NCBI RefSeq assembly: GCF_002095575.1
Contig: NZ_MLJJ01000011.1
Coordinates: 1 to 64,000, forward strand
DNA: 64,000 nucleotides
Direction of reading: 5' to 3'
Source: Pantoea septica
GTDB taxonomy: Bacteria > Pseudomonadota > Gammaproteobacteria > Enterobacterales > Enterobacteriaceae
In this document: in pieces, positions 35,151 through 45,658 of the stretch
Numbering within the stretch: the first letter of the stretch is position 1
Layout of the letters: every line of letters starts with the position of its first letter
Program-made: the position numbers and the translations under genes
The notes under the pieces: generated by a model
What the model was told of the DNA's origin: nothing
The model's database searches: none
The model's input: only the letters and a program-made list of their open reading frames with translations

Positions 35151-36074
35151 CTAAACGTAGAGCGATGCTTCACCCGGCGGGCGGGTTTTGAAGCGGCGGT
35201 GCAGCCACAGATACTGCTCCGGCGCACGCAGAATCTGGCTTTCGATCACCTTGTTCATATAGGCGGCGGCGGCGGCTTCATCGGTATGCGGGTAGTTTTC
35301 CAGCTCGGGATCGATAATCAGCTGATAGCCGTAATTATCGGGATTGCGGATCAGCGAGATGGTCAGCATCGCCGGATTGGCCAGGCGCGACAGAACAAAG
35401 GTGCCGTTGGTGGTCGCGGCTTTCTCAACGGCGAACAGTGGAGCGAAGACGCTGCCTTTCGGACCGTAATCCTGATCCGGCGCAAACCACACTGATTCGC
35501 CTTTCTTCAGCGCATGCACCATACCGCGCAAATCGCGTCGATCGATCATTGCCTTGTTGGATCGCATACGGCCTTTGGTCTGCGCCCACTCCATCGCCCG
35601 GTTGTTGTGTGGGCGGTACATCGCCATCATCGGCTGACATAAACCACTGATGCGGCCGCCCAGCTCCAGCGACATAAAGTGCACGCCGATAACCATTACG
35701 CCGCGCTTCTGCTCCATGGCGGACCGCAGATGGTGCAAGCCTGACACCTCAAACAGTTTTTTCACCGCGCGATCGGACCAGAACCATGCGATGCCGGTTT
35801 CCATCAGCGCCATGCCCAGCGAAGCGAAGTTGCCCGCGATCATGCGCTCTATATCGTGTTCGGCAATGCCGGGAAAGCAGAGTTCGATGTTGCGTCGCGT
35901 AATACGTTCCCGACGCTTAAGGAAATGACGAGAAAGCGTGCCGGCGTTGGCGCCGAGACGCATCAGAAGAGGATAAGGAAGCTGAACCAGCAGCCACAGG
36001 ATGCCCAGACCTAACCAGGTTAACCAGTAACGCGGATGCAGCATTGAACGGCAGAAAGCTCCGGTCTTTTTCAT
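35151..36074 (-). CDS. lpxP: LpxP-like lipid A secondary acyltransferase
   Basis: A 307-aa LpxL/LpxM/LpxP-family enzyme with one N-terminal membrane anchor and the catalytic H-X4-E motif in GVHFMSLELGGR. LHPRYWLTWLGLGILWLLVQLPYP and the end FKTRPPGEASLYV are closest, from memory, to E. coli LpxP, the cold-induced palmitoleoyltransferase that acts on Kdo2-lipid IVA at the inner membrane. LpxL (lauroyl) cannot be excluded by sequence reading alone. It sits in the accessory region rather than next to its E. coli neighbours. Confidence 0.85.
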   Translation of the reverse strand: MKKTGAFCRSMLHPRYWLTWLGLGILWLLVQLPYPLLMRLGANAGTLSRHFLKRRERITRRNIELCFPGIAEHDIERMIAGNFASLGMALMETGIAWFWSDRAVKKLFEVSGLHHLRSAMEQKRGVMVIGVHFMSLELGGRISGLCQPMMAMYRPHNNRAMEWAQTKGRMRSNKAMIDRRDLRGMVHALKKGESVWFAPDQDYGPKGSVFAPLFAVEKAATTNGTFVLSRLANPAMLTISLIRNPDNYGYQLIIDPELENYPHTDEAAAAAYMNKVIESQILRAPEQYLWLHRRFKTRPPGEASLYV

Positions 36075-36598
36075 AGCGCACCTTTATGTGATGAATGTAT
36101 GTATCGCATAAAGAAGCACTTCCCTAAGTTCCCCAGGCGCTACAGCTTGTAGTCAATCGGACCGGCACATTAGCAAAAAGTGCCGCGAAAGAAAGTGAAA
36201 CTGCGGAATCATATGGAGATGAATGTTTCATTGAACGGGTGATTATCGTTAAGAGAAAGAATGTTGTCGATAGAATAAACATTAAAAACAGTGTGTTAGT
36301 TAGATTCCGAAGCGGCAGCCTATAGCAGAAGCACTAACATTAAGAGTGGTCTGGAAATGAATGCTTATGTTTATTTACGCAGAATTTACGCTAGCGGAGA
36401 GAGAAAACGGCCAAAAGCTCGCCCAGAGGCGAGCCTTTCGTATAGCAGATGTCGCCTGTCACTCGATGATCTGAAGCTGAATGTTGATTACAATAAAATA
36501 AATAATATTTATCAACATTTTAATGGATGATTCTTGTGACAGTTTCATATTTGTAAAAAAGTTCTAAATGCAAATTTTTCCTATCGTTGGAGCAAAAA
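36075..36598. other. Gap upstream of lpxP
   Basis: About 520 AT-rich bases with no supportable gene. It carries the lpxP promoter region. At 36411-36434 it has a hairpin GCTCGCC/GGCGAGC followed by TTTTGG on the minus strand, a candidate terminator for transcripts coming down from the DUF3289/DUF943 array. Confidence 0.45.
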
Positions 36599-37060
36599 TC
36601 AGGTGCGGAATGCCCTAATGTAGTGAAACTTCATATTCATAACGTCAGTTTTGCGTGGTAAGGCTAAATTAGAGCGGCAAGTATCAAAATTGACGAGATC
36701 ATCCCGGTATTTTCTGCCTGTTTTCGTGTTCTCCAGGATAACCGCGCCAATTTCTATAATATCCATCTGTTCCCACTCGATAAGGTGAGTAGGATCAGGT
36801 TACTTATAGAAGATGATCATTCCCGCATGAGCAAGCAGAAGTAACTCTGCTTCTTCACAATCGAGATGTTTGGTTGCCAGCGGTAGGGGGTAATAATCAA
36901 ATAGTGCGATAAAATCACTCATCTGCTACGTTCTCCATCCACGCAATCGCTTTACTGAAAGGAGCTTGAGGCAGGCGGTAAGGCGTTGCCGCTTTTCTCT
37001 CCGTCGAGATAGGCTCCCGGCCATTTTGCTGCTTCCACAGATCTGGTGCAAGTAGGTTAG
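36599..37060 (-). pseudogene. Degraded small ORFs downstream of the array
   Basis: Three minus-strand coding-like pieces lie head to tail. One frame ends ...SKAIAWMENVADE at 36919. A 40-aa ORF (36800-36922), MSDFIALFDYYPLPLATK, overlaps that stop as ATGA. A 55-aa ORF (36599-36766), MDIIEIGAVILENTKTG, follows. The ATGA overlap argues they were real genes; the short lengths and lack of an intact start for the first argue decay. I do not recognise them; phage tail or effector-island genes are possible. Confidence 0.35.
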
Positions 37061-37123: not shown

Positions 37124-37570
37124 TTATATTACCGTTTTTTTTATATGGTATTCGCCATCATTTACTGTAAATATAGCGCCTCTGTTTTTGCTGTAACTGA
37201 TTGAAAAAACCCTATCTTTTTCGATGCAGTTTATAGGGGGAGGCATATCAATAAAGCAAAGCCTGTCATATTTCCCTTCCTCTTTATAACCCTCTCCAAA
37301 TAACCAGACGGTCAGATAAAAATAGCCATTTTTATCAGGTTTAGGAATGCCATATTTATCTTTTAGTATATCCTTATTTTTTAGCCACCAGTTAATTTTT
37401 CCTTTATCAGTCGGCGGGAAACTGTTGACCAAAAGATCACTAAAACCACTACTTCTGTGATGAACGGCTATGATCTCCACGGGACGAAGAGACAACCAAA
37501 GCCAATAGCTAATTAGCACGCAGCCAGCCAGAAAGAGCAGAACAATAGTTTTCTTGTTTTTCACTCTCAT
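37124..37570 (-). CDS. DUF943-type single-pass membrane protein, copy A
   Basis: A 148-aa protein of the enterobacterial DUF943 type. It starts with a basic MRVKNKK, has one hydrophobic helix (about residues 8-27) leading into WLSLRPVEIIAVH, then a presumably periplasmic domain with GKINWWLKNKDILKDKYGIPKPDKNGYF, FGEGYKEEGKYDRLCFIDMPPPINCI and an ending with SKNRGAIF. Its ATG overlaps the DUF3289-A stop (ATGA), so the pair is coupled. Its C-terminus differs from the other copies (ends HIKKTVI rather than VKNKSD). Function is unknown; a membrane immunity protein is one possibility. Confidence 0.8.
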   Translation of the reverse strand: MRVKNKKTIVLLFLAGCVLISYWLWLSLRPVEIIAVHHRSSGFSDLLVNSFPPTDKGKINWWLKNKDILKDKYGIPKPDKNGYFYLTVWLFGEGYKEEGKYDRLCFIDMPPPINCIEKDRVFSISYSKNRGAIFTVNDGEYHIKKTVI

Positions 37571-38409
37571 TTGCGAGTTCCTGTAATTTCTATGGTGGCT
37601 TCCATATTGGTCATGAATGGCTTGAAGCAAAACTGATTGTACCGCTGGAGAACAAACCAAATGCGGAAGAAATGGAGCTGGCTGAATTTTGTTTTCAGAA
37701 TATCATCGCTATCCAGACCAAAATGATCCTGGACTTTATAATGTACCACTGCGCGGAAACGGCCATTATCAAGATGTAGCGATTTTATGGCGATATGCGT
37801 TGCCCAGGTATCATGGACGGTAATACCCATGCCGTTATAATTATCCTGGAATCTGTCGAATTTTGGCAACCTTCCACCAGATAAGGCTTCATACAACTTT
37901 GCCTTTTCAATAGATGGATAAATATTATTTTCCCAGTCTATATTGTCTTCAAACGCTTTCTGCAATAACAAGCGTGTACTATTTTCCTTTGAGTTATCCC
38001 TGATAATATGCTCTTTCAATGCTCTGTCCAGCGAAACATCGCGGAAGGGCGTACCATTGCCGTGCTGCATGTGAGTGATCATCTTTTCGATCAGGTGGCT
38101 GTACGGCCCGTAAAAGGAAAACTTGCGGGATAACGAGCGAAATTCATCAAACAGCATTGCGGCGCACTGCCGTCGGGTAATCTTTTCACCCTGGCCGCGC
38201 AGATTACAGCAGAACATGGACTGGGGACGATCCATTGAGGAACGCCGGGTAAGCGTCCAGGGATCAACCCGGTCAGAAATGTAATCCAGCCGGTAATGGG
38301 ATTTTAACTGTGCTTCGGTTAAGTCGCCGCAGCGCATATCTTTAGCGCCGTAGTCGTCCATCCGGTTTTGGGTTTTGAATAGGGTGCAGGGTAACTGTAG
38401 TGCAGCCAT
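37567..38409 (-). CDS. DUF3289-type protein, copy A
   Basis: A 280-aa cytoplasmic-looking protein (no signal peptide or membrane helix) of the DUF3289 type. Residues 1-124 (from MAALQLPCTLFKTQNRMDDYG to GNGTPFRD) and 181-280 (from LPKFDRFQDN) are nearly identical to the other three copies. Residues 125-180 differ, here with NIDWENNIYPSIEKAKL. DUF3289 domains, as I recall, also occur as C-terminal extensions of type VI Hcp proteins in related genera, hinting at an effector role; no Hcp or VgrG is in this window. Confidence 0.8.
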   Translation of the reverse strand: MAALQLPCTLFKTQNRMDDYGAKDMRCGDLTEAQLKSHYRLDYISDRVDPWTLTRRSSMDRPQSMFCCNLRGQGEKITRRQCAAMLFDEFRSLSRKFSFYGPYSHLIEKMITHMQHGNGTPFRDVSLDRALKEHIIRDNSKENSTRLLLQKAFEDNIDWENNIYPSIEKAKLYEALSGGRLPKFDRFQDNYNGMGITVHDTWATHIAIKSLHLDNGRFRAVVHYKVQDHFGLDSDDILKTKFSQLHFFRIWFVLQRYNQFCFKPFMTNMEATIEITGTRK

Positions 38410-38427
38410 CGTGACACATTCCTTGTG

Positions 38428-38522
38428 TTATCGTCCTTTGAGGTCTTCACAGAGAATAATACGCGGTGAAAGGTCAGAGTGTAAATATTGTACAGCCTCT
38501 GCCCGTAAATTTTTGCGGATTC
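38428..38522 (-). pseudogene. Tail of the 58-aa ORF, copy A
   Basis: Upstream of DUF3289-A only the last ~30 codons of the 58-aa ORF survive, reading ...LRAEAVQYLHSDLSPRI then ILCEDLKGR and a stop. The sequence then jumps at a GGGGCAGGGGG run (38523-38533) straight into the 3' flank of DUF943-B. The start and the primase-like fragment seen in units B and C are deleted. Confidence 0.6.
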
Positions 38523-38571
38523 GGGGCAGGGGGAATGATTTTATTGCTGTTTCTACGCGAGAGGAGCGGTT

Positions 38572-39035
38572 CTAATCTGATTTATTTTTTATCATCTTAC
38601 CGCTGTCGTTTAGACGATATGTACCGCTATCCAAAGAGAAATAAGTCCCGGTATTCTTACTGCTATTCACCATTAGAACAGAATTTTTATCGATGCAATT
38701 TATTGGTGGTTTCATATCAGTAAAACAACGTCTATCATATTTGCCTTGTTCCTTGTATCCATCGCCAAAATCCCAAAAAATAACAGCAAAATAGCCAGAG
38801 GATGATGGTTTAGGAATGTTATATTTTTTTTCAACATATCTTTATTTTTTAGCCACCAGTTGATTTTACCCCTATCCGTAAATGGGAAAGCTTTAACTAA
38901 AACAGAAGCATGGCTACCATCCTCATGAACGGCGACAATCGCCACCGGACGCAGTGATAACCAAAGCCAGTAACCTGGCAGAACACAGGCAGTCAGGAAA
39001 ACCAGAATCAAGATTTTTTTATTTTTTACTGTCAT
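38572..39035 (-). pseudogene. DUF943-type gene, copy B, frameshifted in an A8 tract
   Basis: Starts MTVKNKKILILVFL with the usual membrane helix and RPVAIVAVH and reads in frame to KNKDMLKK. At the A8 run (38824-38831) the frame is lost. One more A would restore KYNIPKP and continue in frame to GTYRLNDSG, ending KNKSD at 38574. As written, the product is a 107-aa protein with a wrong tail. Either a true loss, a slippage-prone (phase-variable) tract, or a sequencing error. It overlaps the DUF3289-B 3' end by 17 bases. Confidence 0.7.
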
Positions 39036-39873
39036 TACGCCCTCCAGTGATTTCTGCGGTAGCTTCCATGTTGCTTATAAAAGGTTTAAAACCAAACTGA
39101 TTGTATCGCTGGAGAACAAACCAGATGCGGAAGAAATGGAACTGGCTGAATTTTGTTTTCAGTATATCGTCGCTGTCAAGGCCAAAGTGATCCTGTACTT
39201 TGTAGTGCACAACTGCCCGGTATCGATCATTTTCAATATGTAGTGATTTTATGGTGATATGTGTTGCCCAGGTGTCATGGACGGTGATCCCCATGCCGTT
39301 GAAATTATCCTGGAAGCGGTCAAATTTAGGGAGTTTTCCATCCAGGATGGCATCCATTAGTTGATATTTTTCACTTTCCGGAAAATACTTGTTTTCCCAG
39401 ACGATGCCTGTTTTTAAGGCTTTTGATAACAGAATGCGTGTACTGTTCTTCTCTGACGAATCCCTGATAATATGCTCTTTCAATGCCCTGTCCAGCGCCA
39501 TATCGCGGAAGGGCGTACCATTGCCGTTCTGCATATGAGTGATCATCTTTTCGATCAGGTGGCTGTAGGGCCCGTAAAGGGAAAACTTGCGGGATAACGA
39601 GCGGAACTCGTCAAACAGCATTGCTGCGCACTGCCGTCGGGTAATCTTTTCACCCTGGCCGCGCAGATTACAGCAGAACATGGACTGGGGACGATCCATT
39701 GAGGAACGCCGGGTAAGCGTCCAGGGATCAACCCGGTCAGAAATGTAATCCAGCCGGTAATGGGATTTTAACTGTGCTTCGGTTAAGTCGCCGCAGCGCA
39801 TATCTTTAGCGCCGTAGTCGTCCATCCGGTTTTGGGTTTTGAATAGGGTGCAGGGAAACTGTAGTGCGGCCAT
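39019..39873 (-). CDS. DUF3289-type protein, copy B
   Basis: A 284-aa homologue of the other array copies with the same conserved ends. The variable patch reads GIVWENKYFPESEKYQLMDAI before the shared KLPKFDRFQDN. It starts MAALQFPCTLF; a start five codons upstream (MECVTM) is possible but absent from other units. The paired DUF943 gene is frameshifted, so if the pair is a toxin/antidote this unit would be unprotected unless the partner is still made. Confidence 0.8.
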   Translation of the reverse strand: MAALQFPCTLFKTQNRMDDYGAKDMRCGDLTEAQLKSHYRLDYISDRVDPWTLTRRSSMDRPQSMFCCNLRGQGEKITRRQCAAMLFDEFRSLSRKFSLYGPYSHLIEKMITHMQNGNGTPFRDMALDRALKEHIIRDSSEKNSTRILLSKALKTGIVWENKYFPESEKYQLMDAILDGKLPKFDRFQDNFNGMGITVHDTWATHITIKSLHIENDRYRAVVHYKVQDHFGLDSDDILKTKFSQFHFFRIWFVLQRYNQFGFKPFISNMEATAEITGGRNDSKK

Positions 39874-40451
39874 CGTGACACATTCCATGTGTTATCGCCC
39901 TTTGAGGTCTTCACAGGGAATAATACGCGGTGAAAGGTCAGAGTGTAAATATTGTACAGCCTCTGCATGTAATTTTTTGCAGATTCCGGGCAGGTGTAAT
40001 AAATCGTGCGCCGTGGCACCGACAAAATCAGTCTTTCTGGTGGAGCTCTGCATGGACCGTTTACCCATCGGGATACATCGCCGTCAATGCTGGCAATCGT
40101 AAAGCCTGCTTCCTGCATCAGTAACATATCTACAGCCTCGCCAGTTGCCTGGCGTTCTTTCGGTTCCACCAGCCGGGAGTATTCAGGCACGATGCGCAGG
40201 CGTGGATTTTCAGCTGTATGGCTTGCAGTCTGGTACACCAGCATCGAATAGCGCTTTAAAACAGGCATCAGCATCTGGATTGCACCGGGGGTGCTGTCGT
40301 CAATATCAGTGCCACCAAACGCACACGCCGCCATATTTGACACAATACGCCGCAGCCTGGCTTCTTTCGTCGGAAGTGAGAACCATCGTAGTTTTTCATT
40401 CTCTTTGCGGCGCTCTGCCTTTGTCATTTCTGGTGTGATGGAAATTTGCAC
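39783..40451 (-). pseudogene. Phage-primase-like N-terminal fragment, copy B
   Basis: An open frame of 222 codons (GTG start). Its first ~125 codons look coding: MTKAERRKENEKLRWFSLP, AFGGTDIDDSTPGAIQ, LVYQTASHTAENPRLRIV. These resemble the N-terminal primase-like region of phage or plasmid replication proteins (from memory, moderate). Past codon ~130 the frame overlaps the better-supported 58-aa ORF and then 91 bases of DUF3289-B, so the true gene is probably broken near 40068. It is 97% or so identical to copy C. Confidence 0.4.
39892..40068 (-). CDS. 58-aa ORF preceding DUF3289, copy B
   Basis: Reads MGKRSMQSSTRKTDFVGATA, DLLHLPGICKKLHAEAV, HSDLSPRIIPCEDLKGR and stops 18 bases before the DUF3289-B ATG. 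Differences among the four copies are often silent in this frame (GGG/GGA Gly, CGT/CGG Arg) but change residues in the competing 222-codon frame, which supports this one. No known family recognised; it could be a real small gene or the tail of a lost larger one. No strong ribosome site precedes it. Confidence 0.45.
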   Translation of the reverse strand: MGKRSMQSSTRKTDFVGATAHDLLHLPGICKKLHAEAVQYLHSDLSPRIIPCEDLKGR

Positions 40452-40553
40452 ACATTTAGATAAAATTGCCTTGCTGAGGTCAGAAAAGCAGTTAGCGGTA
40501 AACCGGGCAGGGGATGATTTTTTGCTGTCTCTACGCGAGGGAAAAACCTAATC

Positions 40554-41016
40554 TGTATTAGTCGCGACTTGATCTGACATATGGCCTTGAAAGGTTGAGA
40601 GTTACCGGTTTGATATGGGTATCGAATCCTTATACAAAATACGGGGTAATTCTCATCCTTCATACTGCCAATCCCGTTATCAAACACAAAGCCGGTTTGC
40701 TTAATCTGGCGGAAGAACTCAGCAATGTATCGAAAACCTGTAAAATCATGGCCGTTTCACGTGATACATTTTATCGTTACTGCGAACTGGCCGATGAAGG
40801 TGGCGTGGATGCTTTGATAAACCGGAGTCGCCGCGCACCAAACCTTAAGAACCGTACCGATGATGCTACTGAGCGGTCTGTTATTGATTATGCCGCCAAT
40901 GGAAACGTTACTTGATGGAAAGCGCATCTGGGCTGAGAAAAATTTAAGCCAGATGTAATCTAACAGATACCTGTATAAATAACCGATAACTGTCAGATCA
41001 GGCCTGAGCTAATACA
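40554..41016. mobile_element. Miniature IS481-family element with intact ends
   Basis: Terminal inverted repeats of 26 bases: the left end is TGTATTAG...TTGATCTGACA (40554-40579) and the right end TGTCAGATCAGG...CTAATACA (40991-41016). They are flanked by a 6-base direct repeat CTAATC (40548-40553 and 41017-41022), a target-site duplication. At 463 bases it is under half the ~1.1 kb of full IS481 members and keeps only part of the transposase. The right junction falls exactly on the DUF943-C stop codon, which survives as part of the duplication. Confidence 0.85.
40655..40915 (+). pseudogene. IS481-family transposase, N-terminal fragment
   Basis: The frame from about 40655 reads ILHTANPVIKHKAGLLNLAE, then SRDTFYRYCELADEGG and INRSRRAPNLKNRTDDA, which is the N-terminal helix-turn-helix region of IS481 transposases. 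It ends at a stop after ANGNVT, without the rve catalytic DDE domain, and its native start is not preserved. It cannot encode an active transposase but could be mobilised in trans through the intact ends. Confidence 0.8.
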
Positions 41017-41481
41017 CTAATCTGACTTATTTTTTACTATATTACCGCTGTCATTTATACGATATGTTCCGCTATCTAAAATGAAATAAAGCCCGGTATT
41101 CTTACTGTTGTTCACCATAATGAGCGAATCTTTATCAATGCAATTTATTGGTGGTTTCATATCATCAAAACAGAGTCTGTCATACCCATCAGTTTCTTTA
41201 TATCCATCACCAAAATACCAAAAAATGACGCTAAAAAAACCATCTTGGGCAGGTTTGGGAATGTTATACATGTCCTTGAGCATTTTCTTGTTTTTCAACC
41301 ACCAATTTATTTTCCCTTGTTCGGTCAGTGGGAAATTTTTTACCAAAACATCGCTATAGTTACGTCTTTGATGAACGGCTACGATCTCTACGGGGCGCAA
41401 CGATAACCAGAGGAAGTAACTCAGCAGGGCGCAAATAACCAGTAATAAAGCACAAATAAATTTTTTATTTTTAGATTTCAT
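41017..41481 (-). CDS. DUF943-type single-pass membrane protein, copy C
   Basis: A 154-aa protein with a basic MKSKNKK start, one membrane helix (about residues 7-25), WLSLRPVEIVAVH, then the outer domain with GKINWWLKNKKMLKDMYNIPKP, FGDGYKETDGYDRLCF and DMKPPINCI, ending VKNKSD. The start lies within the 3' end of DUF3289-C (11-base overlap). Its stop codon is formed by the target duplication of the adjacent IS481 element. Closest to copy D at the C-terminus (GYKETDGYD shared). Confidence 0.8.
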   Translation of the reverse strand: MKSKNKKFICALLLVICALLSYFLWLSLRPVEIVAVHQRRNYSDVLVKNFPLTEQGKINWWLKNKKMLKDMYNIPKPAQDGFFSVIFWYFGDGYKETDGYDRLCFDDMKPPINCIDKDSLIMVNNSKNTGLYFILDSGTYRINDSGNIVKNKSD

Positions 41482-42319
41482 AACGGCCACCGGTAATCTC
41501 TACAGTGGCTTCCATATTGGTCATAAATGGTTTAAAGCCAAACTGATTGTAGCGCTGGAGAACAAACCAGATGCGGAAGAAATGGAACTGGCTGAATTTT
41601 GTTTTCAGTATATCGTCGCTGTCAAGGCCAAAGTGATCCTGTACTTTGTAATGCACCACTGCTCGGTATCGGTCATTTTCAATATGCAGTGATTTTATGG
41701 TGATATGTGTTGCCCAAGTGTCATGGACAGTGATCCCCATCCCGTTAAAGTTATCCTGGAATCTGTCGAACTTTGGTAATTTACCACTTAGCACTGCATC
41801 TCTTAATCTGTCTCGGTTTTCTACTGGAAAATGCTTGCTTTCCCAGTCTATGTTTGTTCTAAAGGCTTTCGATAACAAAATGCGTGTACTGTTTCTCTCC
41901 GAAATGTCTTTAACTATGTTTTCTTTCATTGCACTGTCCAGCGACATATCCCTGAAAGGCGTACCATTGCCGTGCTGCATGTGAGTGATCATCTTTTCGA
42001 TCAGGTGGCTGTAGGGCCCGTAAAGGGAAAACTTGCGGGATAGCGAGCGGAACTCGTCAAACAGCATTGCTGCGCACTGCTGTCGGGTAATCTTTTCACC
42101 CTGGCCGCGCAGATTACAGCAGAACATGGACTGGGGACGATCCATTGAGGAACGCCGGGTAAGCGTCCAGGGATCAACCCGGTCAGAAATGTAATCCAGC
42201 CGGTACTGGGATTTTAACTGTGCTTCGGTTAAGTCGCCGCAGCGCATATCTTTAGCGCCGTAGTCGTCCATCCGGTTTTGGGTTTTGAATAGGGTGCAGG
42301 GTAACTGTAGTGCAGCCAT
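41471..42319 (-). CDS. DUF3289-type protein, copy C
   Basis: A 282-aa array member. Conserved ends as in the other copies; variable patch SAMKENIVKDISERNSTRIL with NIDWESKHFPVENRDRL. C-terminus ITGGRYEI differs from the others. Overlaps DUF943-C by 11 bases, so the two are probably cotranslated. The upstream 58-aa ORF and primase-like fragment are complete here. Confidence 0.8.
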   Translation of the reverse strand: MAALQLPCTLFKTQNRMDDYGAKDMRCGDLTEAQLKSQYRLDYISDRVDPWTLTRRSSMDRPQSMFCCNLRGQGEKITRQQCAAMLFDEFRSLSRKFSLYGPYSHLIEKMITHMQHGNGTPFRDMSLDSAMKENIVKDISERNSTRILLSKAFRTNIDWESKHFPVENRDRLRDAVLSGKLPKFDRFQDNFNGMGITVHDTWATHITIKSLHIENDRYRAVVHYKVQDHFGLDSDDILKTKFSQFHFFRIWFVLQRYNQFGFKPFMTNMEATVEITGGRYEI

Positions 42320-42897
42320 CGTGACACATTCCTTGTGTTATCGTCCTTTGAGGTCTTCACAGAGAATAATACGCGGTGAAAGGTCAGAGTGTAAATATTG
42401 TACAGCCTCTGCATGTAATTTTTTGCAGATTCCGGGCAGGTGTAATAAATCGTGCGCCGTGGCACCGACAAAATCAGTCTTTCTGGTGGAGCTCTGCATG
42501 GACCGTTTACCCATCGGGATACATCGCCGTCAATGCTGGCAATCGTAAAGCCTGCTTCCTGCATCAGTAACATTTCTACAGCCTCGCCAGTTGCCCGGCG
42601 TTCTTTCGGTTCCACCAGCCGGGAGTATTCAGGCACGATGCGCAGGCGTGGATTTTCAGCTGTATGGCTTGCAGTCTGGTACACCAGCATCGAATAGCGC
42701 TTTAAAACAGGCATCAGCATCTGGATTGCACCGGGGGTGTTGTCGTCAATATCAGTGCCACCAAACGCACACGCCGCCATATTTGACACAATACGCCGCA
42801 GCCTGGCTTCTTTCGTCGGAAGTGAGAACCATCGTAGTTTTTCATTTTCTTTGCGGCGCTCTGCCTTTGTCATTTCTGGTGTGATGGAAATTTGCAC
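42229..42897 (-). pseudogene. Phage-primase-like N-terminal fragment, copy C
   Basis: Second, almost identical copy of the 222-codon frame (differences such as DDSTPG/DDNTPG and RQATGEAVD/RRATGEAVE). The same coding-like first half and the same overlap with the 58-aa ORF and with the 5' end of DUF3289-C. Being copied in the same broken form shows that the break predates the duplication of the unit. Confidence 0.4.
42338..42514 (-). CDS. 58-aa ORF preceding DUF3289, copy C
   Basis: Same 58-codon ORF as in unit B, MGKRSMQSSTRKTDF to CEDLKGR, ending 18 bases before the DUF3289-C ATG. Conservation of the full frame in two units and of its tail in the other two suggests it belongs to the unit. 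Function unknown. Confidence 0.45.
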   Translation of the reverse strand: MGKRSMQSSTRKTDFVGATAHDLLHLPGICKKLHAEAVQYLHSDLSPRIILCEDLKGR

Positions 42898-42954
42898 ACA
42901 TTTAGATAAAATTGCCTTGCTGAGGTCAGAAAAGCAGTTAGCGGTAAACCGGGC

Positions 42955-42995
42955 AGGGGATGATTTTTTGCTGTCTCTACGCGAGGGGAGCGGAT
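42955..42995 (-). repeat. Conserved junction element at the 3' end of each DUF943 gene
   Basis: GGATGATTTTTTGCTGTC, then TCTACGCGAGGGGAGCGG, lies directly beyond the DUF943-D stop. Related copies follow the other DUF943 genes at about 37067-37100, 38533-38570 and 40508-40545. It marks where one unit joins the next. No strong hairpin is visible, so it looks like a recombination junction or inherited 3' flank rather than a terminator. Confidence 0.6.
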
Positions 42996-43460
42996 CTAAT
43001 CCGATTTGTTCTTTACTATATCCCCTTTATTACTTATACGATATGTTCCACTATCCAGAACAAAATAACTCCCTGTATTTTCACTGTTCCTCACCATAAG
43101 GAGAGAGTTTTTTTCTATACAATTCATCGGTGGTTTCATATCTTTGAAACAAAGGTTGTCATATCCATCTGTTTCTTTATAACCATCGCCAAAATCCCAA
43201 AATACAACTACGAAAGATCCATCTGAGCTATGCTTTGGAATACCATATTTTTCTTCTAACATGTTTTTATTTTCTAGCCACCAAATTATTTTCCCCTTAT
43301 CTGTAGGTGGGAAGCTTCTAACTAAAATATCACTATAGTTATTTTCCTGATGTAGCGCGACAATCTCTACAGGACGTAAACACAGCCAAATCCAGTAACC
43401 TAGTAAAACGCAAGCAGTCAAGAAAAATAGAATCAAGATTTTTTTATTTATTACTTTCAT
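42996..43460 (-). CDS. DUF943-type single-pass membrane protein, copy D
   Basis: A 154-aa protein: MKVINKK, one membrane helix (about residues 8-26), WLCLRPVEIVALH, outer domain with GKIIWWLENKNMLEEKYGIPK, FGDGYKETDGYDNLCFKDMKPPMNCI, ending VKNKSD. Its start overlaps the 3' end of DUF3289-D by 17 bases. Conserved Cys pair (LCF and NCI) in all copies could form a disulfide if the domain is periplasmic. Confidence 0.8.
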   Translation of the reverse strand: MKVINKKILILFFLTACVLLGYWIWLCLRPVEIVALHQENNYSDILVRSFPPTDKGKIIWWLENKNMLEEKYGIPKHSSDGSFVVVFWDFGDGYKETDGYDNLCFKDMKPPMNCIEKNSLLMVRNSENTGSYFVLDSGTYRISNKGDIVKNKSD

Positions 43461-44298
43461 TGCGACTCCCTGTGATTTCTACGGTTGCTTCCATATTGGT
43501 CATAAATGGCTTGAAACCAAACTGATTGTATCGCTGGAGAACAAACCAGATGCGGAAGAAATGGAACTGGCTGAATTTTGTTTTCAGTATATCGTCGCTG
43601 TCAAGGCCAAAGTGATCCTGTACTTTGTAGTGCACAACTGCCCGGTATCGATCATTTTCAATATGTAGTGATTGTAATATGATATGTGTTGCCCAGGTAT
43701 CATGCACGGTGATTCCCATACCGTTAAAATTATCCTGAAAGCGGTCAAATTTAGGGAGTTTTCCACGAGATATAGCAGTCCTTAAATCATCTTTTTGAGC
43801 AACAGGATAAATTCTATTTTTCCAGTCATTTTTTTCTTGAAATACTTTTTCTAACAAAATACGAGTACTATTTTTTTCAGACCTATCATTAAGAATATGC
43901 TCTTTCAATGCCCTGTCCAGCGCCACATCGCGGAAAGGCGTACCATTGCCGTTCTGCATATGAGTGATCATCTTTTCGATCAGGTGGCTGTAGGGCCCGT
44001 AAAGGGAAAACTTGTGGGATAACGAGCGAAATTCATCAAACAGCATTGCTGCGCACTGCTGTCGGGTAATCTTTTCACCCTGGCCGCGCAGATTACAGCA
44101 GAACATGGACTGGGGACGATCCATTGAGGAACGCCGGGTAAGCGTCCAGGGATCAACCCGGTCAGAAATGTAATCCAGCCGGTACTGGGATTTTAACTGT
44201 GCTTCGGTTAAGTCGCCGCAGCGCATATCTTTAGCGCCGTAGTCGTCCATCCGGTTTTGGGTTTTGAATAGGGTACAGGGAAACTGTAGTGCGGCCAT
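43444..44298 (-). CDS. DUF3289-type protein, copy D
   Basis: A 284-aa array member and the first in transcription order. Variable patch KEHILNDRSEKNSTRIL with KNDWKNRIYPVAQKDDL, then HIILQSLHIE where B and C have HITIKSLHIE; this middle stretch is more AT-rich than its flanks. C-terminus ITGSRNESNK. Only a truncated unit tail lies upstream, so its native promoter is not obvious. Confidence 0.8.
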   Translation of the reverse strand: MAALQFPCTLFKTQNRMDDYGAKDMRCGDLTEAQLKSQYRLDYISDRVDPWTLTRRSSMDRPQSMFCCNLRGQGEKITRQQCAAMLFDEFRSLSHKFSLYGPYSHLIEKMITHMQNGNGTPFRDVALDRALKEHILNDRSEKNSTRILLEKVFQEKNDWKNRIYPVAQKDDLRTAISRGKLPKFDRFQDNFNGMGITVHDTWATHIILQSLHIENDRYRAVVHYKVQDHFGLDSDDILKTKFSQFHFFRIWFVLQRYNQFGFKPFMTNMEATVEITGSRNESNK

Positions 44299-44316
44299 CG
44301 TGACACATTCCTTGTG

Positions 44317-44412
44317 TTATCGTCCTTTGAGGTCTTCACAGGGAATAATACGCGGTGAAAGGTCAGAGTGTAAATATTGTACAGCCTCTGCACGTAATTT
44401 TTTGCAGATTCA
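44317..44412 (-). pseudogene. Tail of the 58-aa ORF, copy D; upstream edge of the array
   Basis: The last ~30 codons of the 58-aa ORF (ICKKLRAEAVQYLHSDLSPR to EDLKGR) precede DUF3289-D. Homology to the other units stops abruptly near 44412, where unrelated phage-like sequence begins, marking the array boundary. Confidence 0.55.
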
Positions 44413-44523
44413 GGCAATCAGAATTTTTCTCACGGGTACCGGGCGCGAGCTGATGCTCCCGTCTAATCGTCGGGATTTAGCAAAGTAATTAGTTACTAAC
44501 GCTTACCGGGTGAGGGTTGAATA

Positions 44524-44713: not shown

Positions 44714-44789
44714 TGCGACAGTATGGAAATTAAAAAAGCCCGCATTTAGCGGGCTGGGTTGGTTATCTGCTACTGAGTGCGACAGTATG
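44714..44789. repeat. 12-base direct repeat flanking the yicC terminator
   Basis: TGCGACAGTATG occurs at 44714-44725 and 44778-44789, on either side of the terminator and touching the yicC 3' end. It could be a small duplication or a relic of an integration site. Confidence 0.5.
44732..44755 (-). terminator. Intrinsic terminator of yicC
   Basis: On the minus strand the stem AGCCCGC/GCGGGCT with loop TAAAT is followed by a T6 run (AAAAAA on plus at 44732-44737), 40 bases after the yicC stop. Confidence 0.88.
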
Positions 44790-44794
44790 CAATG

Positions 44795-45658
44795 TTACTC
44801 GATGTTCTGAATCTGCTCGCGCATCTGTTCGATTAACACCTTCAGCTCAATCGCCGATGCGGTCACGTCCGCATTGATCGATTTCGACCCCAGCGTGTTC
44901 GATTCGCGGTTGAACTCCTGCATCATGAAGTCGAGGCGGCGGCCGACGGCCTCTTTTTTGCCGAGGATGTTATAGGTCTCTTTGACATGGGCTTCCAGGC
45001 GATCCAGCTCTTCCGCGACGTCGATGCGCTGCGCCATCATCACCAGCTCCTGCTCGAGACGATTGTTTTCCAGCTGCACTTCTGCTTCTTCCAGCTTCGC
45101 CACCAGACGCTCGCGCTGCCATTTCAGGATCTCAGGCATCTGGGCGCGCACTTTCGCCACTTCCTGCTTCACGCCTTCGAGTCGCTGTTCGATCATGCCT
45201 TTCAGCGCTGCGCCTTCGCTTTCGCGCGCGACGATGAAGTCATCCAGCGCGCCGTCCAGCGCGCTCAGCAGCTGGGCGTTAATCGCATCGAGATCCTGTT
45301 CCTGCGCGGACATCACGCCAGGCCAGCGCAGAATGTCCATCGGATTGATGGCGCCTTCATCGCTCTGCATCTTCACCCAGTTGGCGGCCTGCACCAGCTG
45401 CTTCGCCAGGGTTTCATTCAGCATCAGTTCGCCCTGCGCGCTGGGATCGGCGTCGAAACGCAGGTTGCACTCGATTTTGCCGCGCGTCAGGCGCTGACGA
45501 ATGCGTTCGCGGATAACCGGCTCCAGGCTGCGAAACTGCTCCGGCAGACGGATATAGGTTTCAAGATAACGCTGGTTAACGGAGCGGAGCTCCCAGGCGG
45601 CGCTGCCCCAGGTGCCTTTGGCTTCGCGGCGGGCGTAAGCGGTCATACTGCGGATCAT
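44795..45658 (-). CDS. yicC: YicC, endoribonuclease family protein
   Basis: A 287-aa protein, the same length as E. coli YicC. The N-terminus MIRSMTAYARREAKG and the C-terminal DUF1732 domain with EELDRLEAHVKETYNIL and GRRLDFMMQEFNRE(S)NTLGSK are family signatures. YicC has been described as an RNase that contributes to decay of sRNA RyhB in E. coli. It marks the return to core synteny, but a lipoprotein and a transporter gene are inserted between it and rph. Confidence 0.95.
   Translation of the reverse strand: MIRSMTAYARREAKGTWGSAAWELRSVNQRYLETYIRLPEQFRSLEPVIRERIRQRLTRGKIECNLRFDADPSAQGELMLNETLAKQLVQAANWVKMQSDEGAINPMDILRWPGVMSAQEQDLDAINAQLLSALDGALDDFIVARESEGAALKGMIEQRLEGVKQEVAKVRAQMPEILKWQRERLVAKLEEAEVQLENNRLEQELVMMAQRIDVAEELDRLEAHVKETYNILGKKEAVGRRLDFMMQEFNRESNTLGSKSINADVTASAIELKVLIEQMREQIQNIE

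What the first reader, a model, noticed from the sequence alone, without database searches (positions are those of the whole stretch)
37124..44412. Four-fold tandem array of DUF3289-type/DUF943-type gene pairs
Seen: four minus-strand units, each a DUF3289-type gene overlapping (4-17 bases) a DUF943-type gene whose product has one membrane helix and a conserved Cys pair. Known: both families are of unknown function; I recall DUF3289 domains fused to Hcp in type VI secretion loci of related genera (not verified). Inference: an array of orphan effector tips with membrane immunity partners, or a store of immunity variants. Roles could be reversed (DUF943 as membrane toxin).
Basis: partly seen in the sequence, partly recalled or inferred. 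Interest (0 to 1): 0.82.

Follow-up and report, generated by a model that had tools for sequence, protein, structure and literature searches.

The report
Swappable-lock toxin and immunity gene array
Four neighbouring copies of a gene for a predicted cell-wall-attacking toxin share almost identical front halves, while their rear halves and partner immunity genes differ and, in three of the four, match copies from other bacterial genera better than each other, so the array likely collects different lock-and-key versions of one predicted weapon against rival bacteria.

Summary
The array is real: four minus-strand DUF3289 genes, each followed by an overlapping DUF943 gene, between yicC and an lpxP-like gene. 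All four DUF3289 genes are intact; the third DUF943 gene is frameshifted. The families are no longer of unknown function: DUF3289 is published as a colicin-M-like type VI secretion effector, DUF943 as its immunity protein (PMC11148199, PMC12135965), and my fold matches agree. New is the architecture. A promoter-like box plus codons 1-120 are 96-98% identical among siblings (dS 0-0.19). From codon ~121 through the immunity gene the siblings are anciently diverged, and units 1, 2 and 4 match Rosenbergiella or Kosakonia copies better (88-95% DNA). Over 82 intact pairs from 24 genomes, residues 121-180 name the nearest immunity relative in 42, residues 1-65 in 5; 21 added, more divergent pairs do not show this. 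Residues ~121-190 are therefore probably the immunity-recognition segment, exchanged with the immunity gene, while the homogenised front half serves as recombination anchor. The yicC address recurs in several genera and is empty in the closest relative examined. A new variant of polymorphic effector-immunity systems; secretion, toxicity and specificity of these copies are untested.

The parts
43444..44298 (-). Unit 1 toxin gene (DUF3289, 284 aa), intact
   Evidence: PF11692 E 1.9e-113; 29 of 29 family-invariant residues kept
42996..43460 (-). Unit 1 immunity gene (DUF943, 154 aa), intact, overlaps the toxin by 17 nt
   Evidence: PF06092 E 6e-58; overlap
41471..42319 (-). Unit 2 toxin gene (DUF3289, 282 aa), intact
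   Evidence: 29 of 29 invariant residues
41017..41481 (-). Unit 2 immunity gene (DUF943), intact, overlaps by 11 nt (a GTG start at 41490 is also possible)
   Evidence: PF06092 E 6.6e-64
39019..39873 (-). Unit 3 toxin gene (DUF3289, 284 aa; possible earlier ATG at 39888), intact
   Evidence: PF11692 E 3.1e-111
38581..39035 (-). Unit 3 immunity gene (DUF943), frameshifted near a run of eight A
   Evidence: two HMM pieces in different frames; sequence
37567..38409 (-). Unit 4 toxin gene (DUF3289, 280 aa), intact
   Evidence: PF11692 E 5e-112
37124..37570 (-). Unit 4 immunity gene (DUF943), intact, overlaps by 4 nt
   Evidence: PF06092 E 2.8e-52
43939..44423 (-). Constant block of unit 1 (about 115-125 nt upstream plus codons 1-120); the same block starts units 2, 3 and 4
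   Evidence: sliding identity 90-100% among siblings; dS 0-0.19
43759..43938 (-). Variable segment of unit 1 (codons 121-180), inferred immunity-recognition segment
   Evidence: nearest-neighbour agreement with DUF943 peaks here
44345..44374 (-). Promoter-like box TTTACA-18-TATTAT, first base 76 nt upstream of the ATG; identical boxes at 42366-42395, 39920-39949 and 38456-38485
   Evidence: consensus match only
36551..36652 (-). Remnant of a fifth DUF3289 gene (C-terminal piece with stops)
39783..40451 (-). 222-aa open frame upstream of unit 3; near-identical copy upstream of unit 2 at 42229-42897, sign of a duplication that included units 2 and 3
   Evidence: four relatives besides itself
40548..41020 (+). 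Insertion-element-like fragment with an HTH_29 domain, between units 2 and 3
44795..45658 (-). yicC, upstream boundary and recurrent chromosomal address
   Evidence: TIGR00255; same neighbourhood in other genera
35151..36074 (-). lpxP-like acyltransferase gene, downstream boundary
   Evidence: NF005952; empty site in G022

Best explanation
This is an array of four orphan DUF3289 genes, predicted to encode colicin-M-like toxins delivered by the genome's type VI secretion system, each followed by a DUF943 gene (frameshifted in unit 3) whose product would neutralise its own toxin in the periplasm. Shown here: every unit starts with a nearly identical block (a promoter-like box and codons 1-120) and continues with an old, strongly diverged block (codons 121-280 and the immunity gene); in units 1, 2 and 4 the second block is closest to a copy in another genus while the first is closest to the siblings. 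Inferred: the second block arrives by horizontal transfer; the shared front half is kept alike by recombination inside the array and is where new rear halves are joined on; residues ~121-190 carry the recognition of the immunity protein, so the copies are one enzyme with different locks. A cell would thus carry several non-cross-protecting versions of one weapon next to yicC, and injure neighbours that lack any one of the matching immunity genes. Untested: secretion, toxicity and cross-immunity of these four copies.
Confidence: 0.72

Rival explanations
1. Plain tandem duplication followed by drift: one pair was copied three times in place and the rear halves diverged by point mutation.
For: Units 2 and 3 also share several hundred nt further upstream at 98-100% identity, so at least one local duplication happened.
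Against: Within one gene dS jumps from 0-0.19 (codons 1-120) to 0.2-2.3 or saturation (codons 121-278), and 2.6-3.0 or saturation in DUF943; rear blocks of units 1, 2 and 4 match other genera better than siblings.
Confidence: 0.06
2. Immunity bank: the array mainly stores immunity genes against rivals' toxins, and the toxin genes are passengers on the way to decay.
For: Elsewhere 65 intact DUF943 genes sit beside a broken or missing toxin against 1 intact toxin with a broken DUF943; runs of DUF943 behind one toxin exist (L104, L112); orphan immunity arrays are published for Vibrio cholerae (PMC5361080, passages).
Against: In this window all four toxin genes are intact and keep 29 of 29 family-invariant residues, while the only broken gene of the four units is an immunity gene.
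Confidence: 0.17
3. Roles reversed: DUF943 is a membrane toxin and DUF3289 its antidote.
For: One-helix membrane proteins can be toxic (general knowledge).
Against: Published expression tests in E. coli, Aeromonas competition data for a DUF3289 effector, fold matches of DUF3289 to colicin M toxins and of DUF943 to an immunity protein, and loss of toxin with retention of DUF943.
Confidence: 0.02
4. The toxins are delivered by another route (contact-dependent inhibition or release as bacteriocins) and not by T6SS.
For: No Hcp or VgrG near the pairs; colicin M relatives are diffusible bacteriocins (general knowledge); one array contig of this genome also has a CdiA-like protein.
Against: A T6SS-dependent orphan DUF3289 effector is published, PAAR-fused or PAAR-linked relatives exist, and all 16 DUF3289-bearing genomes of the genus have VipB.
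Confidence: 0.1

Closest known systems
DUF3289 / DUF943 effector-immunity pair T6EC1-T6IC1 (PMC11148199)
   Same: Same two Pfam families, immunity protein with an N-terminal membrane helix
   Different: In the passages read the published pair is a single pair in a T6SS operon; the words tandem and array do not occur in that text. Here several orphan pairs form an array with a homogenised front half and exchanged rear halves
BtpeA CTD-BtpiA, Bacteroides fragilis T6SS effector-immunity complex (PDB 9jdi)
   Different: The crystallised part is residues 252-608 of a longer protein (a 608-residue DUF3289 chain is in 9jg8), so it has an extra N-terminal region of about 250 residues; the window proteins consist of the toxin domain alone
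Colicin M family (colicin M, PaeM, syringacin M, pectocins M1 and M2)
   Different: Diffusible bacteriocins with import domains (recalled); modest structural scores; active-site equivalence untested
Rhs/CDI C-terminal displacement (for example PMC5727410, passages)
   Same: Constant 5' part, exchangeable 3' part with its immunity gene; orphan 3' modules at related loci
   Different: There the tips carry different toxin activities and downstream copies are truncated; here all four copies stay full-length and keep one enzyme fold, and the segment that tracks immunity is internal
Vibrio cholerae T6SS immunity gene arrays (PMC5361080, passages)
   Same: Orphan immunity genes retained after loss of the toxin (at related loci), horizontal acquisition, recombination in a constant 5' region
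   Different: Those lie in T6SS clusters behind vgrG; here the address is yicC, with no T6SS gene found nearby, and the toxin genes of the window are retained

Membership tests
DUF3289 (PF11692 / TIGR03034) | Profile score above the curated cut-off | tested here: met
   371-379 bits against 25; unit 1 only: 400.8 against 156.45
DUF943 (PF06092) | Profile score above the cut-off, full length | tested here: met
   units 1, 2 and 4 met (unit 4 covers profile 3-143 of 151); unit 3 frameshifted
Colicin M-like toxins | Colicin M catalytic fold | tested here: met
Colicin M-like toxins | Catalytic residues of colicin M (recalled, from no call) | not tested
   an invariant block DHFGLD..D and W251..Q255 R256 exists, but residue-level equivalence was not computed
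Colicin M-like toxins | Lipid II hydrolysis | not testable with these tools
   needs biochemistry
T6SS effectors | Functional T6SS in the same genome | tested here: inconclusive
   VipB, Hcp and VgrG on C58; completeness and activity not tested
T6SS effectors | Linkage or fusion to Hcp, VgrG or PAAR (supporting feature, not a defining one) | tested here: not met
   none near the window array; 2 of 74 stretches have PAAR. The published Aeromonas effector is also orphan
T6SS effectors | T6SS-dependent secretion | not testable with these tools
   needs experiment
C-terminal displacement loci (Rhs/CDI type) | Constant 5' part and variable 3' part with its immunity gene | tested here: met
C-terminal displacement loci (Rhs/CDI type) | One complete gene followed by truncated orphan toxin tips | tested here: not met
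   all four toxin genes in the window are full-length; truncated tips occur at other loci
Immunity gene array (V. cholerae type) | Run of immunity genes without their toxins | tested here: not met
   not in the window; runs of DUF943 behind one toxin at L044, L047, L104 and L112

The most novel reading that the evidence does not exclude
The array is a specificity library: one colicin-M-like enzyme kept in several intact copies whose internal ~70-residue lock segment and matching immunity gene are imported from other genera, while a shared promoter-plus-front-half block is held identical by gene conversion so that any newly captured lock is at once expressed and exported. The set of locks at the yicC address would act as a multi-locus kin-recognition barcode.
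Probability: 0.38. Interest if true: 0.74.

Novelty: new variant of a known kind. Interest (0 to 1): 0.57.

Why it matters
It places a testable immunity-specificity segment (about residues 121-190) in a widespread toxin family whose pairing was reported in 2024, and suggests how a bacterium can accumulate intact copies of one weapon with different locks. It links two patterns known apart, C-terminal displacement in Rhs/CDI loci and immunity gene arrays in Vibrio, at a recurrent chromosomal address with no secretion genes nearby. Genome surveys that look only beside VgrG, Hcp or PAAR would miss these arrays.

Tried and rejected
Plain duplication with drift was rejected by the dS jump and the reciprocal best matches. 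A simple mirror-tree correlation did not separate the segments well (rho 0.32-0.36 for all three, partial values 0.21-0.28); neighbour agreement did. Mean distances among pairs with close immunity genes also separated them only slightly (ratios 0.50-0.61). The 21 added pairs did not reproduce the V excess. A transfer reading of the 98% DUF943 match to Pantoea septica was dropped, because the window's genome may itself be P. septica or close to it. The 222-aa frame upstream of units 2 and 3 found no Pfam, NCBIfam or plasmid match and four relatives besides itself; a source calls one of them a partial DNA primase, which I do not rely on. DUF943 found no significant PDB relative by sequence (best E 0.41). 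Searches for BtpeA and related terms gave only unrelated papers or none, so the published interface could not be read. PDB matches not listed by VIA-align exclude nothing. An inverted and direct repeat scan of the downstream flank and of the empty site found only short matches, no insertion-site repeat that I would rely on.
Full report
THE OBSERVATION. Four minus-strand DUF3289 genes, each followed by an overlapping DUF943 gene, lie at 37124-44298. Overlaps are 17, 11, 17 and 4 nt. All four toxin genes are intact and keep 29 of 29 residues that are invariant in a 49-sequence family alignment which includes them. Three DUF943 genes are intact; that of unit 3 is frameshifted near a run of eight A. 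A decayed fifth toxin remnant sits at 36551-36652. The flanks are yicC and an lpxP-like gene. In G022, whose YicC is the most similar (97%) among the 19 other genomes searched, the same gap is 482 bp and holds no such pair, against 8720 bp here.

THE GENOME. The window's genome (4.3 Mb, 89 contigs) has 14 DUF3289 and 15 DUF943 HMM matches, pieces included, on contigs C28, C7, C11 and C2; 8 toxin and 12 immunity genes are intact by my criteria. It has one VipB and an Hcp and a VgrG on the same contig C58. P. septica or a near relative is my guess: named P. septica proteins are among the best hits, while no P. septica contig is among the 69 loci (80 of 83 relatives kept), a tool that may leave out the window's own or near genomes.

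KNOWN FUNCTION. Two searches found 7 papers naming DUF3289 and 3 naming DUF943, seven distinct papers in all; I read passages of each. PMC11148199 (abstract and passages) reports DUF3289 as a colicin M homologue toxic in the periplasm and DUF943 as its immunity protein; it says that T6SS-dependent secretion remained to be shown. PMC12135965 (passages) shows an orphan DUF3289 protein of Aeromonas jandaei as a T6SS effector, with an immunity protein of another kind (95 residues, three predicted membrane helices). PMC12469244 (passage) finds the two families linked in Klebsiella T6SS loci. None of the passages describes arrays of such pairs; only these two searches of this library support that absence.

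THE MOSAIC. Among the four units, from about 115-125 nt upstream to about nt 360-380 of the toxin gene identity is 90-100% in 60-nt steps; it then falls to 53-85% in the steps that start at nt 380, 440 and 500, recovers in part over the catalytic region and falls again in the DUF943 gene. Synonymous divergence shows that this is history and not constraint: dS is 0-0.19 for codons 1-120, 0.34-2.3 or saturated for 121-180, 0.21-1.7 or saturated for 181-278, and 2.6-3.0 or saturated for DUF943 (three intact genes). dN/dS stays below 1, highest in residues 146-180 (0.24-0.48) apart from tiny counts in codons 1-65. Between genomes the front is less conserved than the rear core (mean distance 0.35 for residues 1-65 against 0.14 for 181-210), so its near identity inside the array is not due to strong constraint.

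EXTERNAL MATCHES. In units 1, 2 and 4 the front block is 96-98% identical to siblings but 86, 90 and 88% to the chosen best external unit, whereas the immunity block is 63-73% identical to siblings and 94, 95 and 88% to the external unit (Rosenbergiella gaditana L019 for units 1 and 4, Kosakonia oryziphila L016 for unit 2). Over whole units, unit 1 is 92.3% identical to R. gaditana over 1447 nt, while yicC, rph and nupC of another Rosenbergiella (R. epipactidis, L076) are 73, 78 and 70% identical to the window; core genes of R. gaditana and K. oryziphila themselves were not compared. Unit 3 has no such close named match: rear 84% and immunity 76% to its best external unit against 76-84% and 65-73% to siblings.

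ACROSS RELATIVES. The 69 named loci, seven stretches of the own genome and the window (77 sequences) gave 88 intact toxin genes; 87 have a DUF943 directly downstream, 82 of them intact by the stricter criterion, and the exception (L062) ends at a contig end. On these 82 pairs from 24 genomes, the ratio of same-locus to other-genome distance is 0.61 for residues 1-65, 0.94 for residues 146-180 and 0.96 for DUF943 31-150; 13 of 14 loci with two or more pairs have a lower ratio for residues 1-65 than for 146-180, but for 181-210 against 146-180 it is only 8 of 14. In 1000 permutations of locus labels none reached the observed ratio of residues 1-65, and 21 reached that of 146-180. The nearest relative by residues 121-180 is also the nearest by DUF943 in 42 of 82, by residues 1-65 in 5 and by 211-278 in 12. 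The four sliding windows that cover residues 121-195 agree in 26.5-39.7 of 82, all others in 4.5-14.1. With neighbours limited to other genomes the counts are 46.6 (121-180), 13.5 (1-120) and 15.3 (181-278) of 82; bootstrapping genomes gives a V-N difference of 0.40 (0.24-0.54) and a V-C difference of 0.38 (0.25-0.49). Thinning columns to equal information keeps about a two-fold excess on 103 pairs; shuffled labels give 1.1 on average, at most 5.5. Mirror-tree correlations do not separate the segments.

A CHECK THAT FAILED. Further loci gave 24 toxin copies not seen before, besides 34 duplicates; 21 had an intact DUF943, two (L085) had DUF943 hits only beyond my distance limit, and one was partial. 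In these 21 all three segments score 9.0 of 21. The signal therefore belongs to the array-forming group and not to every lineage.

DECAY PATTERN. Of 178 DUF943 hits, 65 intact ones away from a locus edge stand beside a broken toxin, a C-terminal toxin piece or no toxin, 83 beside an intact toxin, and 1 intact toxin away from an edge has a broken DUF943: unit 3 of this window. The loci were fetched by toxin matches, which biases towards intact toxins and so makes the asymmetry conservative. Unit 3 is thus an outlier; a sequencing slip in the A run is possible.

THE ADDRESS. Of the 69 named loci, 8 also contain yicC (Erwinia phyllosphaerae, Erwinia sp. 198, Tatumella ptyseos, [Erwinia] mediterraneensis, Erwinia sp. 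ErVv1, Pseudescherichia vulneris, Rosenbergiella epipactidis, Mixta theicola); in 5 the first DUF3289 starts 192-527 nt after yicC, in 3 it is 3.1-6.4 kb away. Of 14 DUF3289 stretches fetched from the genus, 4 contain yicC: L105, L106, L109, and L110, which is the same stretch as L039. Of ten other same-genus yicC sites fetched (9-14.5 kb each), 0 show DUF3289 and 1 (L126) has a lone DUF943.

SECRETION LINK. With queries for Hcp, VgrG, TssC, TssK and PAAR, 2 of 74 stretches (69 named loci, 4 own stretches, the window) have a hit, both PAAR (L077, L080). A Klebsiella record has a PAAR-annotated gene holding the DUF3289 match, followed by DUF943. So the pairs are orphans. In the genus 16 of 16 genomes with DUF3289 have VipB, against 35 of 45 without (one-sided p 0.035). 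Pairs also occur on Pantoea agglomerans plasmids (2 of 11 plasmid-collection records with a DUF3289 hit), a possible vehicle.

EXPRESSION. All four units carry the same promoter-like box TTTACA-18-TATTAT with its first base 76 nt upstream of the ATG; a terminator-like hairpin follows yicC at 44737-44755. These are consensus matches only (32 promoter-like sites found against 18.1 expected in shuffles; 12 terminator-like against 9.0).

CONCLUSION. The array is best read as a set of colicin-M-like, T6SS-type effectors with one conserved enzyme and exchanged immunity specificity. Closest known patterns are C-terminal displacement (PMC5727410, passages) and Vibrio immunity gene arrays (PMC5361080, passages); the difference is that full-length copies are kept and that the segment tracking immunity is internal to a shared enzyme fold.

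Noticed in passing
G332:C1:3952003-3952764 (unnamed family member): A DUF3289 match (profile 2-255) lies inside an open frame of 10979 aa, a possible giant protein carrying this toxin domain.
   Followed up: no
window 40548-41020: Insertion-element-like fragment with HTH_29 between units 2 and 3; the 18 Salmonella plasmid rows listed match it at 91% identity.
   Followed up: partly
window 39783-40451 and 42229-42897: Duplicated 222-aa open frame upstream of units 3 and 2, with four relatives besides itself in the protein database; origin unclear.
   Followed up: partly
L112 and L104: One DUF3289 followed by six DUF943 hits, two of them partial (L112), or three (L104): candidate immunity banks.
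   Followed up: no
L126:2423-2854: Lone DUF943 at the yicC site of another genome of the genus, with no toxin found.
   Followed up: no
L010:11655-15986: CdiA-like protein with haemagglutinin repeats and a PT-VENN domain a few kb beyond one of the genome's other arrays.
   Followed up: no
G000:C25:65-277 and C12:50217-50453: Truncated or decayed Hcp matches, each within about 1 kb of a 173-175 aa open frame that may be an effector.
   Followed up: no
CP125156.1 in the plasmid collection: A 5.37 Mb record labelled as a Klebsiella plasmid, probably a mislabelled chromosome.
   Followed up: no
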